Of a DNA stretch of 64,000 nt, positions 28,236 to 42,835 are shown piece after piece. Source of the DNA: Streptomyces sp. MspMP-M5 (GTDB lineage Bacteria > Actinomycetota > Actinomycetes > Streptomycetales > Streptomycetaceae); the NCBI RefSeq assembly GCF_000373585.1, contig NZ_KB891882.1, positions 1 through 64,000 of the forward strand. Direction: 5' to 3'. Under the pieces are notes generated by a model. The model was not told where the DNA came from, made no database searches, and saw only the letters and a list, made by a program, of their open reading frames with translations. The translations under genes were made by a program, and so were the position numbers. Position 1 is the stretch's first letter, and the number at the start of each line of letters is the position of its first letter.

Positions 28236-28337
28236 ATGCCGCGCGTGAGGAGTCAACTCCCGCTGCACCGGCGCCTGTTCCTGGACCTCGCACGGCTCGC
28301 CTCCGCGGTGTGTCGTCCGGCGGGCCGCCGACTCTGA
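28236..28337 (+). CDS. Putative Cys leader peptide (33 aa)
   Basis: This short ORF starts ATG and encodes 33 residues, including RRLFLDLARLASAVCRP near the C-terminus. The pattern RRxxLDLxRxAxxxCRP is the same as in the ORF at 40863-40949. It matches, from memory, short leader peptides seen upstream of sulfur-metabolism genes in streptomycetes. The Cys is the rare codon TGT followed by CGT. The next gene on this strand, a secreted beta-propeller, starts 298 bp downstream. No clear ribosome-binding site is seen; GTG 28245 is an alternative start. Confidence 0.6.
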   Translation: MPRVRSQLPLHRRLFLDLARLASAVCRPAGRRL

Positions 28338-39768: not shown

Positions 39769-40146
39769 CTAGCGCTCCACCGGAAGCCCCGCCGCGCGCC
39801 ATGCCTGGAAGCCGCCGATCAGGTCGGTCGCGCGGTGCAGGCCCAGCTGGTGCAGGGAGACCGCCGCCAGGCTGGAGGCGTAGCCCTCGTTGCAGATCAC
39901 CACGACCGGCAGAGCGTGGTGGGTCGCCTCGGGGGCGCGGTGCTCACCCGTCGGATCGAGCCGCCACTCCAGCTCGTTGCGCTCGACGATCAGCGCCCCG
40001 GGGATGGTGCCGTCGCGTTCGCGCAGCAGCGCATAGCGGATGTCCACCAGTAGTCCGCCGGCTTCCTGGAGCGCCGCGGCCTCCGCCGGACCCACCCGGC
40101 TCAGCCCGCGCCGGGCCCGCGCCAGCAGCTCGTCGATCGCGCTCAT
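39769..40146 (-). CDS. Rhodanese-like sulfurtransferase
   Basis: The 125-aa single-domain rhodanese has LLVDIRYALLRERDGTIPGALIVERNELEWRL-type core segments and the active-site loop VVVICNEGYASSLAA with Cys85. Such proteins transfer sulfane sulfur from thiosulfate or persulfides. It follows the cysteine dioxygenase gene by 76 bp on the same strand, so both probably belong to one sulfur-metabolism operon. It converges on recX. Confidence 0.9.
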   Translation of the reverse strand: MSAIDELLARARRGLSRVGPAEAAALQEAGGLLVDIRYALLRERDGTIPGALIVERNELEWRLDPTGEHRAPEATHHALPVVVICNEGYASSLAAVSLHQLGLHRATDLIGGFQAWRAAGLPVER

Positions 40147-40222
40147 ACCGCGAACTCGCTTCGCCCGCCCGCGCGTTCGCGCGGCGCGCCGCTTCCCGGC
40201 CCGCGCTCGTTCCGCCCGCGCA

Positions 40223-40762
40223 TCACCACTCCTCCGGTCGCTCGACCTCTTCCAGCCGAAGCACCGCCCCGCTGCGGCTGTAGCGCCGCATCAGCGGCAG
40301 CGGCGGATAGTAGGCGTGCACCGACACCGCATGGGTGTCGGGGGAGAGGTTGAGCACCTGATGGACGTGGTGCGGGCCGAACGCCCGGCCCCGTCCACCG
40401 CTCAGCCGGCGCTCCCGGTCGACACCGTCGGCGAGCTCCAGCGTCCGCCACCCCTCGGTGGGAATCGCGGCGGCCAGCGACTGCTCGGTCAGCTCCCCGG
40501 CGGCCGCAGCGAAGGCACCGCGCGAACCGCCGTGGTCGTGCCAGCCGGTGCCGGTGCCGGGCGGCCAGCCGATCAGCCACGCCTCGCTGCCGCCCGGCCC
40601 GTCGAGCCGGATCCAGGTGCGGCCCTCCGGATCGAGCGGCAGCGCGGCGACCAGCGCGCGGTCGGCGGCGGTACGGCGGACGAAGTCGAGGAGTTCGGCG
40701 GCGCCGGGGCCGCCGTCCTGAGCGCGGGCACGCGGCCGCGCAGGGGTGTGTACATCGGGCAC
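40223..40762 (-). CDS. Cysteine dioxygenase-like cupin
   Basis: The 179-aa protein is a type I cysteine dioxygenase-like cupin, expected to oxidise cysteine to cysteine sulfinate with non-haem iron. Metal ligands are visible as GWHDHGGSRGAF (His75, His77) and GPHHVHQVLN (His132/His134). The GTG at 40762 is chosen because AGGA lies 8 nt upstream; the frame extending to 40894 runs through the leader and hairpin. A Cys leader peptide (40863-40949) and a hairpin precede it. The rhodanese gene follows. Substrate could also be another thiol such as 3-mercaptopropionate. Confidence 0.85.
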   Translation of the reverse strand: MPDVHTPARPRARAQDGGPGAAELLDFVRRTAADRALVAALPLDPEGRTWIRLDGPGGSEAWLIGWPPGTGTGWHDHGGSRGAFAAAAGELTEQSLAAAIPTEGWRTLELADGVDRERRLSGGRGRAFGPHHVHQVLNLSPDTHAVSVHAYYPPLPLMRRYSRSGAVLRLEEVERPEEW

Positions 40763-40813
40763 GGGAACCGTCCTGAGTGATCGTGCGGAGCGCGGCCGCC
40801 GGATACCGGGCAA

Positions 40814-40842
40814 CTGCCGCGCGGGGAGGGCCACCGCGGCAG
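40814..40842 (-). promoter_or_regulatory. Hairpin between Cys leader peptide and cysteine dioxygenase gene
   Basis: CTGCCGCG (40814-40821) and CGCGGCAG (40835-40842) form a perfect 8-bp stem with a 13-nt loop, 21 nt after the leader ORF stop and 52 nt before the dioxygenase start (minus strand). Its place fits an attenuator or a ribosome-controlled switch, but no U tail is seen. Confidence 0.45.
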
Positions 40843-40862
40843 CACGGCCGGGGCGGTGGGGA

Positions 40863-40949
40863 TCAACAGGACGGACGACACATGCAGCCCGCATAGCGGA
40901 GCAGGTCCAGATGGACCCTCCGCCAGAACCGCGAGCTGTGTTCAGTCAC
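40863..40949 (-). CDS. Putative Cys-responsive leader peptide (28 aa)
   Basis: This ORF encodes 28 residues starting GTG and ending with RRVHLDLLRYAGCMCRP followed by Ser-Cys-stop. Three of the last eight residues are Cys, two as the rare codon TGT. Its GTG overlaps the stop of the flavin monooxygenase gene (8-nt overlap GTGACTGA), so it may be translated by coupling. It lies 100 bp upstream of cysteine dioxygenase. The ORF at 28236 has the same signature. I recall similar leader peptides upstream of sulfur genes in actinomycetes; a translation-controlled switch is inferred. Confidence 0.72.
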   Translation of the reverse strand: MTEHSSRFWRRVHLDLLRYAGCMCRPSC

Positions 40950-42690
40950 CCTCGGAGTCAAGCACGGGGTCTCCGGGAGGGTCAACCGGCCACGGTGCCG
41001 GTGCCGGGCCGGCCGCCGGGTCCGCCGCGGCCCCGCCGCGCACCGCGTCCGCGCAGGCGGCGAGTTCGTCCGGCCGCACCCCGGACAGCGCGGCGACCAG
41101 ATGGCCGTCGGGCCGTACCACCAGCACGGTGTGTGCCGCGGCGCCCGGATACGCCTCGGTGACCAGGACCTCCGCCCGCATCGGCAGCGCGGCCACCGCC
41201 TCCGTCAGACGGGGCATCAGCCCCGCCGACTGCCAGTGCCGCTGGTCCCACACCCCCGTGCCGGGCGCCACCAGCACCACCAGCAGCCCCCGGCCGAGCC
41301 GGTCGCGCAGCCCCTCCGACGCGCCGTCGGAGGCGGTCACCGGTACGTCCACCACCGGTGCCCCCGGGAAGGTGCCGACCGCCGTCCCGCCGGGCAGGTC
41401 CGGGGGCGCCGCCAACGGTGTCCGCGGATAGGACGGGGGCGCGCCGAGCGGGCCGCGGCCCAGGTGGCCGTCGGTCAGCAGGGTGCTGCGCCCGCGCGCC
41501 GCCCCCGGCAGCACCGTCCGCCAGCGCACCGCACCACCGTCCCGGAGCAGCGGAAGCGCCGAGTCGGCGGCCCGCAGCCGGGCGGCGACCGCGGCCCGGC
41601 GCTCGGCCTGATAGCTGTCCAGCAGGGTGTCGGTGGCGCCGTGGTGCCAGGCCAGCCCCAGCTTCCAGGCGAGGTTCTCGGCGTCCCGCAGGCCCTCGTC
41701 CAGGCCCTGGGTGCCCAGCGCGCCCAGCAGATGGGCGGCGTCGCCGGCGAGGAAGGCGCGGCCCCGCCGCCAGGTCCGCGCCAGCCGGTGGTGGACGGTG
41801 TGGACGCCGGTGTCGAGGAGTTCGTAGGGCGGGACCAGGCCGGTGTGGCCATGTCCGGCCGGCGCGCCGCCCTCGCCGGCGGACCCGGCCGCCGCCTCCG
41901 CCGCCCAGCCGGCCAGCGAGTCGCGGATCCGGGCCACCAGCGCGTCCGGGGTCACCAGATCGCGCCCCGGGGGCAGCAGCCAGTCCAGCCGCCAGACCCC
42001 GCCGGGCAGCGGGCGGGCGGCGACCTCGCTGAACCGGCCGCCGCCGTGCCGGGCCGGCGAGCGGTGCAGCAGCGCCTCGCCGGGCCAGGGGAGTTCGGTG
42101 CGCAGCGTGGCCACCGCGTGCCGTTCGACGGCGGTGCGGCCGGGGAAGCGGATGTCCAGCAGCTTGCGCACGGTGGACCGCGGGCCGTCGCAGCCGACGA
42201 GGTAACTCCCGCGCCACCAGGTGCCGTTGGCGCCGCGAGTCTGGGCGCTGACACCCTTCTCGTCCTGCTCGACGGCGGCCAGCCGGCTGCCGGAGACGAC
42301 CTGGGCGAGCGGTTCGCCGGCCAGCGCGGCGCGCAGCGCGCGGGCCAGCGCGTGCTGGGGGAGGTGCACCGGGGGCGCATCCGCGGCCGCGCCGTCCGCA
42401 CCCTCCGCGCCGTCCTGGGCGCCGGCGAAGGCGACCCGTTCCAGCAGCCGGCGGCGGCGCATGGTGCGCCACGCCGACCAGCGGGCACCGGCGCCCGCCA
42501 GGGTGTCCGCGCAGCCGAGCCGGGCGGTGAACGCCGCGGTGTCCGGGCGGAGTACGACGGTGCGGGCGGGCCGGTCCTCCTCCTCGCCGCCGGTCTCGTC
42601 GAGGACGACGACGGGCACGCCGTGCCGGGTCAGGGCGAGGGCGAGCGCGAGACCGACCGGGCCGGCCCCGGCGACGATCACCGGCTCCAC
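40942..42690 (-). CDS. FAD-dependent aromatic-type monooxygenase
   Basis: The 582-aa flavoprotein resembles phenol/polyketide hydroxylases (PheA/TetX type). It has the N-terminal dinucleotide fold VEPVIVAGAGPVGLALALAL, the middle motif YLVGCDGPRSTVRKLL and the second FAD motif GRAFLAGDAAHLLGALGTQGLDEGLRDAENLAWKL, split here across residues about 285-325, and a thioredoxin-like C-terminal domain (about 430-560). The substrate is unknown. The GTG at 42690 is chosen since GGGGAG lies 7 nt upstream and FAD motif starts at once; the ATG at 42828 lies within the terminator of the glu operon. Its stop overlaps the Cys leader ORF. Confidence 0.88.
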   Translation of the reverse strand: MEPVIVAGAGPVGLALALALTRHGVPVVVLDETGGEEEDRPARTVVLRPDTAAFTARLGCADTLAGAGARWSAWRTMRRRRLLERVAFAGAQDGAEGADGAAADAPPVHLPQHALARALRAALAGEPLAQVVSGSRLAAVEQDEKGVSAQTRGANGTWWRGSYLVGCDGPRSTVRKLLDIRFPGRTAVERHAVATLRTELPWPGEALLHRSPARHGGGRFSEVAARPLPGGVWRLDWLLPPGRDLVTPDALVARIRDSLAGWAAEAAAGSAGEGGAPAGHGHTGLVPPYELLDTGVHTVHHRLARTWRRGRAFLAGDAAHLLGALGTQGLDEGLRDAENLAWKLGLAWHHGATDTLLDSYQAERRAAVAARLRAADSALPLLRDGGAVRWRTVLPGAARGRSTLLTDGHLGRGPLGAPPSYPRTPLAAPPDLPGGTAVGTFPGAPVVDVPVTASDGASEGLRDRLGRGLLVVLVAPGTGVWDQRHWQSAGLMPRLTEAVAALPMRAEVLVTEAYPGAAAHTVLVVRPDGHLVAALSGVRPDELAACADAVRGGAAADPAAGPAPAPWPVDPPGDPVLDSEGD

Positions 42691-42805
42691 GGGGCGGCTC
42701 CCCGGATCCGGCGGTACGTACGGGACGTGCGGGAACGGGCAGAGGGGGGCCGGTGCGTGATCACACAGCGTATGCAACCCATTGCGGCCGCCGCCGTCAA
42801 GTGAC

Positions 42806-42835
42806 GGAGGCGGTGGCGCCGTTGCCACCGCCTCC
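42806..42835. terminator. Terminator of the glu operon
   Basis: A perfect 12-bp inverted repeat GGAGGCGGTGGC / GCCACCGCCTCC (42806-42817, 42824-42835) with a 6-nt loop lies 39 nt after the gluD stop on the minus strand. Confidence 0.88.

What the first reader, a model, noticed from the sequence alone, without database searches (positions are those of the whole stretch)
40863..40949. Unannotated Cys leader peptide before cysteine dioxygenase, fused by overlap to the preceding gene
A 28-codon ORF ends with RRVHLDLLRYAGCMCRP then Ser-Cys-stop. Its GTG overlaps the upstream monooxygenase stop codon. A hairpin and the cysteine dioxygenase gene follow. The design suggests cysteine-dependent control, but with a catabolic target, where classic attenuation logic (cysteine abundance switches off) would be backwards. 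The switch may work by ribosome stalling or release that opens, rather than closes, the downstream gene.
Basis: partly seen in the sequence, partly recalled or inferred. Interest (0 to 1): 0.75.

Follow-up and report, generated by a model that had tools for sequence, protein, structure and literature searches.

The report
Cysteine-sensing leader before dioxygenase gene
A tiny peptide gene in front of a Streptomyces sulfur enzyme most likely acts as a cysteine gauge whose last codons hide the enzyme gene's ribosome-binding site until ribosomes stall for lack of cysteine; it belongs to a known family of such gauges, but one sitting on an enzyme thought to destroy cysteine is unexpected.

Summary
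The ORF is real, on the minus strand: 28 codons, GTG 40949 to TGA 40863. It scores above the cut-off of NCBIfam NF042934 "putative leader peptide", so it is not of an unknown kind. It precedes 77 of 80 Streptomyces relatives of this dioxygenase and evolves as coding sequence (pN/pS 0.36; other frames above 1). Promoter-like boxes suggest a transcript starting at the GTG. Its last codons, CCGUCCUG, are complementary to the dioxygenase Shine-Dalgarno CAGGACGG; 63 of 78 sequences keep all 8 pairs. In modelling, a ribosome held at the second Cys codon frees the site. I infer translational attenuation: cysteine scarcity turns the gene ON, as at other sulfur genes with such leaders. In published S. 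coelicolor data SCO5772, an annotated cysteine dioxygenase, rises 8-fold with cysI, cysM and cysA under peroxide. The overlap with the monooxygenase looks incidental. Not settled: polarity in vivo, the enzyme's substrate, and why the peptide is conserved beyond its cysteines.

The parts
40956..40985 (-). promoter-like boxes: -35 TTGACC (40985-40980), 18-nt spacer, extended -10 TGC-TTGACT (40964-40956), 6 nt before the GTG
   Evidence: TTGA box in 78 of 78 sequences; T..A.T -10 in 77 of 78, all 77 with TG before it; spacer 17-18 nt; start codon 6-7 nt after the -10, implying leaderless transcription. The generic sigma-70 scan found no promoter (it requires A at position 2 of the -10).
40863..40949 (-). 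leader ORF, 28 codons, GTG start, MTEHSSRFWRRVHLDLLRYAGCMCRPSC
   Evidence: (NF042934, 33.3 bits, cut-off 27); ATG or GTG 24 or 27 nt before the Trp codon in 78 of 78.
40896..40923 (-). hairpin P1 inside the leader ORF (GCGGAGGGTCC/GGACC..TCCGC)
   Evidence: helix 1, 98.4% of cells paired in 57 sequences, one compensatory pair (L072 AGA/TTG); only somewhat more stable than synonymous recodings (5-30% tail).
40878..40886 (-). sensing codons Cys1 TGC (40886-40884), Met, Cys2 TGT (40880-40878)
   Evidence: Cys at both positions in 78 of 78; second codon TGT in 78 of 78.
40867..40874 (-). anti-Shine-Dalgarno CCGTCCTG inside the Pro-Ser-Cys codons
   Evidence: perfect 8-bp complement of CAGGACGG in 63 of 78; all 8 pairs in the minimum-energy fold of 56 of 78, 4-7 pairs in 19 (window: 6), none in 3.
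40768..40775 (-). Shine-Dalgarno of the dioxygenase gene, CAGGACGG, 5 nt before GTG 40762
   Evidence: located by searching for GGACGG; CAGGACGG in 77 of 78.
40778..40865 (-). extension of the sequestering stem: TGATC (40865-40861) with GATCA (40782-40778), enclosing inner hairpins
   Evidence: fold; helices 3-4 (92.4% and 90.1% paired); own-versus-swapped test. The window lacks the further GCG/CGC pairs seen in many relatives.
40223..40762 (-). cysteine dioxygenase family gene (CDO_I), 179 codons from GTG 40762
   Evidence: PF05995 E 2.5e-43; one search matches PDB cysteine dioxygenases with WHDH, H.H and S.HAY residues aligned.
39769..40146 (-). rhodanese-domain gene behind the dioxygenase
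   Evidence: PF00581; a homologue behind the dioxygenase on the same strand in 80 of 80 loci.
40942..42828 (-). upstream FAD-dependent monooxygenase; its 3' end holds the leader promoter boxes and overlaps the leader by 8 nt
   Evidence: considered incidental.

Best explanation
It is a cysteine-responsive translational attenuator. A transcript that begins at the leader GTG (inferred) is translated at once. When Cys-tRNA is plentiful, ribosomes run to the UGA and leave; the codons CCG-UCC-UGU then pair with the dioxygenase Shine-Dalgarno (CCGUCCUG with CAGGACGG, extended by UGAUC/GAUCA here, or UUCGC/GCGAA in other species, and an inner hairpin) and translation of dioxygenase and rhodanese stays low. 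When Cys-tRNA is scarce, ribosomes stall at UGC or UGU, cover the anti-Shine-Dalgarno, and the gene is translated. Shown by sequence: the ORF, its conservation, the 8-bp complementarity, the promoter-like boxes, the shared leader family. Shown by modelling only: exposure of the site by a ribosome at Cys2. Inferred: stalling under cysteine shortage, the ON direction, the effect on dioxygenase level.
For: Family: NF042934 above cut-off; 23 of 23 leaders scanned match it at E 0.01 or better; 41 of 41 Streptomyces genomes carry 3-13 matches at E 0.001, 0 of 14 controls do (at E 1 six controls ring, none over cut-off). Targets here: sulfite reductase, ThiS-type carrier plus PALP-family synthase, rhodanese-type sulfurtransferase, ABC permease, flavin reductase, a GST-like protein and (below cut-off) an SDF symporter. 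Coding: pN/pS 0.355 in frame. Sensor: Cys1 and Cys2 78 of 78, Cys3 only 70 of 78. Switch: 63 of 78 perfect 8-bp pairs; in 8 same-genus loci not used to find the pairing, 8 of 8 keep CAGGACGG and 6 of 8 the perfect pair. Mean opening energy of the Shine-Dalgarno: 12.3 kcal/mol free, 10.0 with a ribosome at Cys1, 6.2 at Cys2; window 9.8, 4.2, 4.2. No terminator-like site. Cys-rich leaders of other sequence precede this genome's second dioxygenase and dioxygenases L122 and L123 outside the genus. Expression: SCO5772 up 8.0-fold with cysI 9.3, cysM 8.5, cysA 8.3 (PMC4991794, section 20 part 1); in S. shaoguanensis both dioxygenases are basal at 0-48 h and up at 96 h, sulfate-reduction genes down at 24-48 h and variably up at 96 h (PMC12763843, passages).
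Against: The Shine-Dalgarno helix shows no compensatory change and its pairing energy is the same when loci are swapped (-14.37 against -14.35); given Pro-Ser-Cys about 17% of synonymous versions would contain the 8-mer, CAGGACGG occurs 18 times on the two strands of the window, and 2 of 50 coding-like ORFs have AGGACGG before a possible start. In the model a ribosome at the stop codon opens the site as much as one at Cys2 (6.0 against 6.2), and in the window one at Ala (two codons before Cys1) already does (4.5), so the anatomy alone fixes neither polarity nor codon. In 22 of 78 loci the gain at Cys2 is under 5 kcal/mol, and in L040 and L080 there is none. The averaged unpaired probability of the AGGA core at Cys2 is only 0.26. 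The peroxide induction was reported as dependent on the HbpS-SenS-SenR system, which can act on transcription. Cysteine dioxygenase is known as a catabolic enzyme, and dioxygenase genes rise in feather medium, which is cysteine-rich; cysM did not change there. A codon sensor alone does not explain the conserved R-x-H-x-D-L-x-R peptide. Of 20 other-genus dioxygenase loci looked at, only 2 showed a leader directly upstream.
Confidence: 0.68

Rival explanations
1. Reverse polarity (TnaC-like in kind): when cysteine is plentiful the conserved nascent peptide slows release at the stop codon, the parked ribosome covers the anti-Shine-Dalgarno, and the catabolic gene is induced by its substrate.
For: A ribosome at the stop opens the site as well as one at Cys2. 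The peptide is conserved beyond its cysteines. Dioxygenase mRNA rises on cysteine-rich feather medium in two Streptomyces.
Against: The last codon is the variable one: Cys3 is lost in 8 of 78 while Cys1 and Cys2 never are. The motif is shared with leaders of sulfur-assimilation genes. In two published datasets dioxygenase and sulfate-assimilation genes rise together.
Confidence: 0.13
2. Leader that mainly delivers ribosomes to the dioxygenase gene by reinitiation or by keeping its mRNA open, with little response to cysteine.
For: Each of the modelled ribosome positions from Cys2 to the stop opens the site on average; reinitiation at leader peptides has been proposed as general (PMC4833913, start of abstract in a search listing).
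Against: Invariant Cys1/Cys2 and an invariant TGT codon, and recurrence of Cys-rich leaders at sulfur genes, point to cysteine sensing. Distance from leader stop to the Shine-Dalgarno GGACGG varies from 47 to 254 nt.
Confidence: 0.1
3. The peptide itself acts in trans, for example as a metal- or thiol-binding small protein.
For: Strong peptide conservation with two invariant cysteines and one histidine.
Against: The 3' codons are also constrained as nucleotides (TCC 73 of 78 against 32% of Ser codons in the background; TGT 78 of 78), and the ORF is fixed directly before its target gene.
Confidence: 0.04
4. A chance ORF without function; regulation is by promoter only.
For: The generic promoter and terminator scan is negative and I have no expression data for this strain.
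Against: Conservation in 77 of 80 loci, in-frame constraint, curated family model.
Confidence: 0.02

Closest known systems
NCBIfam NF042934 cis_reg_atten, putative leader peptide
   Same: Matches the 19-position motif above the curated cut-off (33.3 against 27 bits); 23 of 23 orthologous leaders match at E 0.01 or better.
   Different: The listing shows a name and a peptide motif only. It does not name the target, the anti-Shine-Dalgarno or the mechanism here.
Mycobacterial polycysteine leaderless short ORFs (Ms5788A, Ms4527A; Canestrari et al. 2020)
   Same: Short leaderless ORF with C-terminal Cys codons before sulfur genes. The paper's title (in reference lists) calls them cysteine-responsive attenuators; PMC13236596 (passages) describes occlusion of the Shine-Dalgarno and release by stalling, and cites it for cysteine genes. 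Weak NF042933 match (18 bits, cut-off 45).
   Different: Two or three separate Cys codons instead of a run; target is a cysteine dioxygenase; below the cut-off of the mycobacterial model. The Canestrari paper itself was not held; that Ms5788A and Ms4527A are its ORFs is recalled.
Leader peptides listed for S. lividans TK24 (PMC8079986, Table 4)
   Same: Leader peptides in Streptomyces, several on leaderless transcripts, including a Cys-rich one (RCMCRRMCAF) before metNIQ (passages).
   Different: The eight listed are assigned to Leu, Trp, Ala, Ile, Met and Thr; none is a dioxygenase leader and none is assigned to cysteine.
TnaC / tryptophanase leader of E. coli (recalled, no call)
   Same: Leader peptide that switches on a catabolic gene, with conserved residues beyond the sensed amino acid.
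   Different: Acts through arrest at the stop codon and Rho; here the terminal residue is variable and the Shine-Dalgarno is paired.

Membership tests
NF042934 cis_reg_atten leader peptide | score above the curated 27-bit cut-off | tested here: met
   33.3 bits; 31.8 bits in the genome search
NF042934 cis_reg_atten leader peptide | short ORF directly upstream of a sulfur-metabolism gene | tested here: met
   Leader stop 100 nt before the CDO_I start
Mycobacterial Ms5788A leader (NF042933) | score above the curated 45-bit cut-off | tested here: not met
   18 bits
Cys-responsive translational attenuator (works like) | leaderless start of the short ORF | tested here: inconclusive
   Promoter-like boxes ending 6-7 nt before the start codon in 77 of 78; no transcription start data
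Cys-responsive translational attenuator (works like) | Cys codons placed so that a stalled ribosome covers the sequence pairing with the downstream Shine-Dalgarno | tested here: met
   depends on an assumed footprint of -12 to +15 nt around the P site, and not every locus gains (22 of 78 under 5 kcal/mol)
Cys-responsive translational attenuator (works like) | downstream gene induced by cysteine limitation | not testable with these tools
   Only indirect published co-expression
trp-type transcription attenuator | intrinsic terminator between leader and gene | tested here: not met
   0 terminator-like sites in 40200-41100
Cysteine dioxygenase (target enzyme) | CDO_I family with three-His site and Ser-His-Tyr triad | tested here: met
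   PF05995 148 bits; WHDH, HVH and SVHAY aligned to PDB chains; residue roles recalled
Cysteine dioxygenase (target enzyme) | oxidises L-cysteine rather than another thiol | not testable with these tools
   No assay; no closely related solved structure (best E 9.8e-12)

The most novel reading that the evidence does not exclude
The leader is a compound sensor: a conserved nascent peptide (R-x-H-x-D-L-x-R, a few residues before the sensing Cys) helps arrest the ribosome at a near-invariant rare UGU codon, and the coding triplets that follow are themselves the anti-Shine-Dalgarno. Through such leaders Streptomyces switches on both of its cysteine dioxygenases, with a rhodanese beside one of them, when cysteine runs short, which would make them sulfur-salvage rather than cysteine-degrading enzymes.
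Probability: 0.22. Interest if true: 0.7.

Novelty: new member of a known kind. Interest (0 to 1): 0.42.

Why it matters
It gives a testable anatomy for a widespread but only "putative" Streptomyces leader family (matches in 41 of 41 genomes searched) and places a cysteine dioxygenase in what looks like the cysteine-starvation set. If so, the textbook role of bacterial cysteine dioxygenase as cysteine degradation needs a second look in actinomycetes, and feather-degradation work that reads dioxygenase induction as a response to excess cysteine may have the cause reversed.

Tried and rejected
Fused-by-overlap idea: rejected, the same-offset stop is found in 19 of 77 loci only. Longer ORF from TTG 40985: not favoured; some relatives have an in-frame stop just upstream of the GTG (for example L018, L024) and the promoter-like boxes lie there. 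Intrinsic terminator: none. Rfam: no match in this region at gathering thresholds. Internal start ATG/CTG/GTG behind GGAGG inside the leader: rejected as general, 9 of 78 have CTC there. P1 hairpin as the cause of the peptide motif: not supported; many other NF042934 leaders share the peptide but fold no better than synonymous recodings (for example L089, L131-L133, L139, L143), although a few do fold better (L091, L137, L144). UGU as part of the Shine-Dalgarno pairing: fits CysO-like and sulfite-reductase leaders by eye (TGTC with GACA) but folding gave mixed results and it does not explain the dioxygenase leader. Coevolution: no compensatory pairs in the Shine-Dalgarno helix and no difference between own and swapped loci there; for the second helix own pairing beats swapped pairing (-6.92 against -6.59, sd 0.11), with at least one of 2000 permutations as good. 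Averaged unpaired probability of the AGGA core rose only from 0.02 to 0.26 at Cys2, so I turned to opening energies. RNAalifold on the gappy alignment found P1 but not the full Shine-Dalgarno helix. The library lacks most subscription journals, and the papers that I opened were seen in parts only.

Full report
What is there. The window is from a Streptomyces-like genome (G000, 8.6 Mb; relatives). A rhodanese-domain gene follows (39769-40146). The leader GTG and the monooxygenase TGA share the 8-nt string GTGACTGA; the start codon itself does not touch the stop codon.

Is it real. In the best 80 relatives of the dioxygenase, all Streptomyces, 77 have the leader in front of it. Of the other three, L034 ends 24 nt upstream, L035 has no leader and a different upstream sequence, and L070 keeps only the first part, with the second Cys codon, the anti-Shine-Dalgarno and the hairpin region missing. 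In a separate draw of 148 genomes of the class, the eight other same-genus genomes with a high-scoring CDO_I match (L100-L107) have it in 8 of 8; two more same-genus genomes (G089, G133) gave only weaker matches, and the one of these read, L120, showed no such leader. In 57 aligned sequences the only indel within the ORF is one whole codon. Averaged over pairs of these, pN/pS is 0.355 in the leader frame against 1.109 and 2.042 in the other two; for the core from Trp on it is 0.207. NCBIfam NF042934 "putative leader peptide" matches at 33.3 bits, cut-off 27, and 23 of 23 leaders that I aligned (of 78) match it at E 0.01 or better.

Promoter. In 78 of 78 sequences (77 loci and the window) a TTGA box lies 25-45 nt before the start codon; in 77 of 78 a T..A.T box preceded by TG lies 17-18 nt further on and ends 6-7 nt before the ATG or GTG. 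This implies a transcript that begins at the start codon, as reported for several S. lividans leader peptides (PMC8079986, passages). The generic scan, which demands A at the second position of the -10, found no promoter. No transcription-start data were available for this locus.

Codons. Cys1 and Cys2 are Cys in 78 of 78; Cys3 in 70 of 78. Cys2 is TGT in 78 of 78, Cys1 TGC in 59 and TGT in 19. Among Cys codons in window coding-like ORFs TGT is 18 of 184. The second Arg of WRR is AGG in 74 of 78, against 2.3% of Arg codons in the dioxygenase genes. The rows were picked by the pattern WRRVHxDLxR, but the looser pattern had found the same 77 loci.

The switch. The last codons CCG-TCC-TGT contain CCGTCCTG, the exact complement of CAGGACGG, which stands 5 nt before the dioxygenase GTG. 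Both are present in 63 of 78 sequences; the Shine-Dalgarno is CAGGACGG in 77 of 78 (located by searching GGACGG). In the eight loci L100-L107, not used to find this, 8 of 8 have CAGGACGG and 6 of 8 the perfect pair; in five further dioxygenase leaders (L141, L152, L154, L155, L157) 2 of 5 have the perfect pair. Behind the stop codon the stem continues (TGATCCGC with GCGATCA, or TTCGC with GCGAA; in the window only TGATC with GATCA) around an inner hairpin. In minimum-energy folds all eight octamer pairs form in 56 of 78, four to seven in 19 (window: six), none in 3. Over 32 pairs in 57 sequences, 94.5% of cells pair against 31-41% when the partners are slid; five pairs show a both-sided change, none of them in the Shine-Dalgarno helix, and own and swapped loci pair equally well there. 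Given Pro-Ser-Cys, about 17% of synonymous versions would hold the 8-mer; of 67 leaders ending Pro-Ser-Cys 63 do. CAGGACGG is not rare: 18 copies on the two strands of the window, and 2 of 50 coding-like ORFs there have AGGACGG before a possible start. RNAalifold on the gappy alignment found P1 but not the full helix.

Modelling the ribosome. With an assumed footprint of -12 to +15 nt around the P site, the mean energy to open the Shine-Dalgarno octamer over 78 sequences is 12.3 kcal/mol free, 10.0 with a ribosome at Cys1, 6.2 at Cys2 and 6.0 at the stop; for the window 9.8, 4.2, 4.2 and 4.2. In 56 of 78 the gain at Cys2 is over 5 kcal/mol; at Cys1 in 7 of 78; L040 and L080 gain nothing at Cys2. 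Thus a ribosome waiting for Cys-tRNA at the invariant second Cys codon sits where it must to free the site. A ribosome parked at the stop would do the same, and in the window one at the Ala codon already does (4.5), so the anatomy alone does not prove the polarity.

Company it keeps. NF042934 in this genome hits 7 places above cut-off, of 13 at E 1. Besides the dioxygenase they precede a nitrite/sulfite reductase, a ThiS-type sulfur carrier followed by a PALP-family synthase, a rhodanese-type sulfurtransferase, an ABC permease, a flavin reductase and a GST-like protein; an eighth leader below cut-off precedes an SDF symporter. The genome's second CDO_I gene (L160) has its own leader with four Cys, MLATSAHRLTRSYGSLCAVQARCRCSSCRSH, and outside the genus Cys leaders stand directly before CDO_I genes in L122 (MTARQVVTSVRLYRRTHLDLMRSVSTACRRG) and L123 (MTGLLLVVRATSGAGGRCCRCC). 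These are 2 of the 20 other-genus loci among L109-L129; the rest showed no leader directly upstream by my pattern. All 41 Streptomyces genomes searched hold 3-13 NF042934 matches at E 0.001, the 14 controls none.

Direction. In S. coelicolor under peroxide SCO5772 rises 8.0-fold in the same table as ssuABC, cysN-cysI, cysA, cysM and metIN, along with some unrelated genes (PMC4991794, section 20 part 1); SCO5772 is annotated as putative cysteine dioxygenase in PMC3087709 (passage). That it is the orthologue of this gene, beside recA-recX, is recalled. The authors tie the response to HbpS-SenS-SenR, so this shows co-regulation, not the leader at work. In S. shaoguanensis on feathers the two dioxygenase genes are basal at 0-48 h and up 21.7- and 6.4-fold at 96 h, while sulfate-reduction genes are down at 24-48 h and variably up at 96 h; cysM does not change, and extracellular cysteine compounds are rising (PMC12763843, passages). 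In Streptomyces SCUT-3 both dioxygenase genes rise on feathers (PMC7181669, passages), which can be read either way. Together with the shared leader family I read the direction as ON under cysteine shortage, at moderate confidence.

What stays unexplained. A pure codon sensor needs only its Cys codons, yet R-x-H-x-D-L-x-R is shared across leaders of unrelated targets. The P1 hairpin does not explain it, since many other leaders with the motif fold no better than synonymous recodings, though a few do. In 29 of 29 leaders read from 30 loci (L138 gave none) the motif-final Cys is TGT; they are not independent, but by eye span several target types (CysO-like, sulfite-reductase-like, dioxygenase and others). 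In this genome L093 is an exception: above the cut-off, but without a Cys at that place and with its one Cys codon TGC. A nascent-peptide part in stalling is the most novel reading not excluded. Why an enzyme known for degrading cysteine should be induced by cysteine shortage is also open; salvage of sulfur from other thiols, with the conserved rhodanese neighbour (80 of 80), is my inference.

Noticed in passing
L130-L159 and window 40880-40878: The motif-final Cys codon of NF042934 leaders is the rare TGT in 29 of 29 leaders read from 30 loci (background 18 of 184 Cys codons in window coding-like ORFs); in this genome L093 is an exception.
   Followed up: partly
L160, 1621-1716 (before the second dioxygenase of the same genome): A four-Cys leader of unrelated sequence precedes the second CDO_I gene.
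   Followed up: partly
L070 (Streptomyces sp. adm13(2018)): The leader lacks its second Cys codon, anti-Shine-Dalgarno and hairpin region but keeps the Shine-Dalgarno and dioxygenase: possibly a natural derepressed variant, or an assembly error.
   Followed up: no
S. lividans metL, PMC8079986 Table 4: The leader called methionine-dependent ends RCMCRRMCAF, and metNIQ rises with cysteine genes under peroxide in S. coelicolor (PMC4991794 Table 1); it may sense cysteine.
   Followed up: no
window 28263-28313, + strand (L094): Weak NF042934-like stretch (21 bits, below cut-off) inside a 330-aa open frame, which ends SAVCRPAGRRL.
   Followed up: no
L072 leader: Paired rare codons AGA and TTG keep a P1 base pair (G-C changed to A-U), the one both-sided change seen in that hairpin.
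   Followed up: yes
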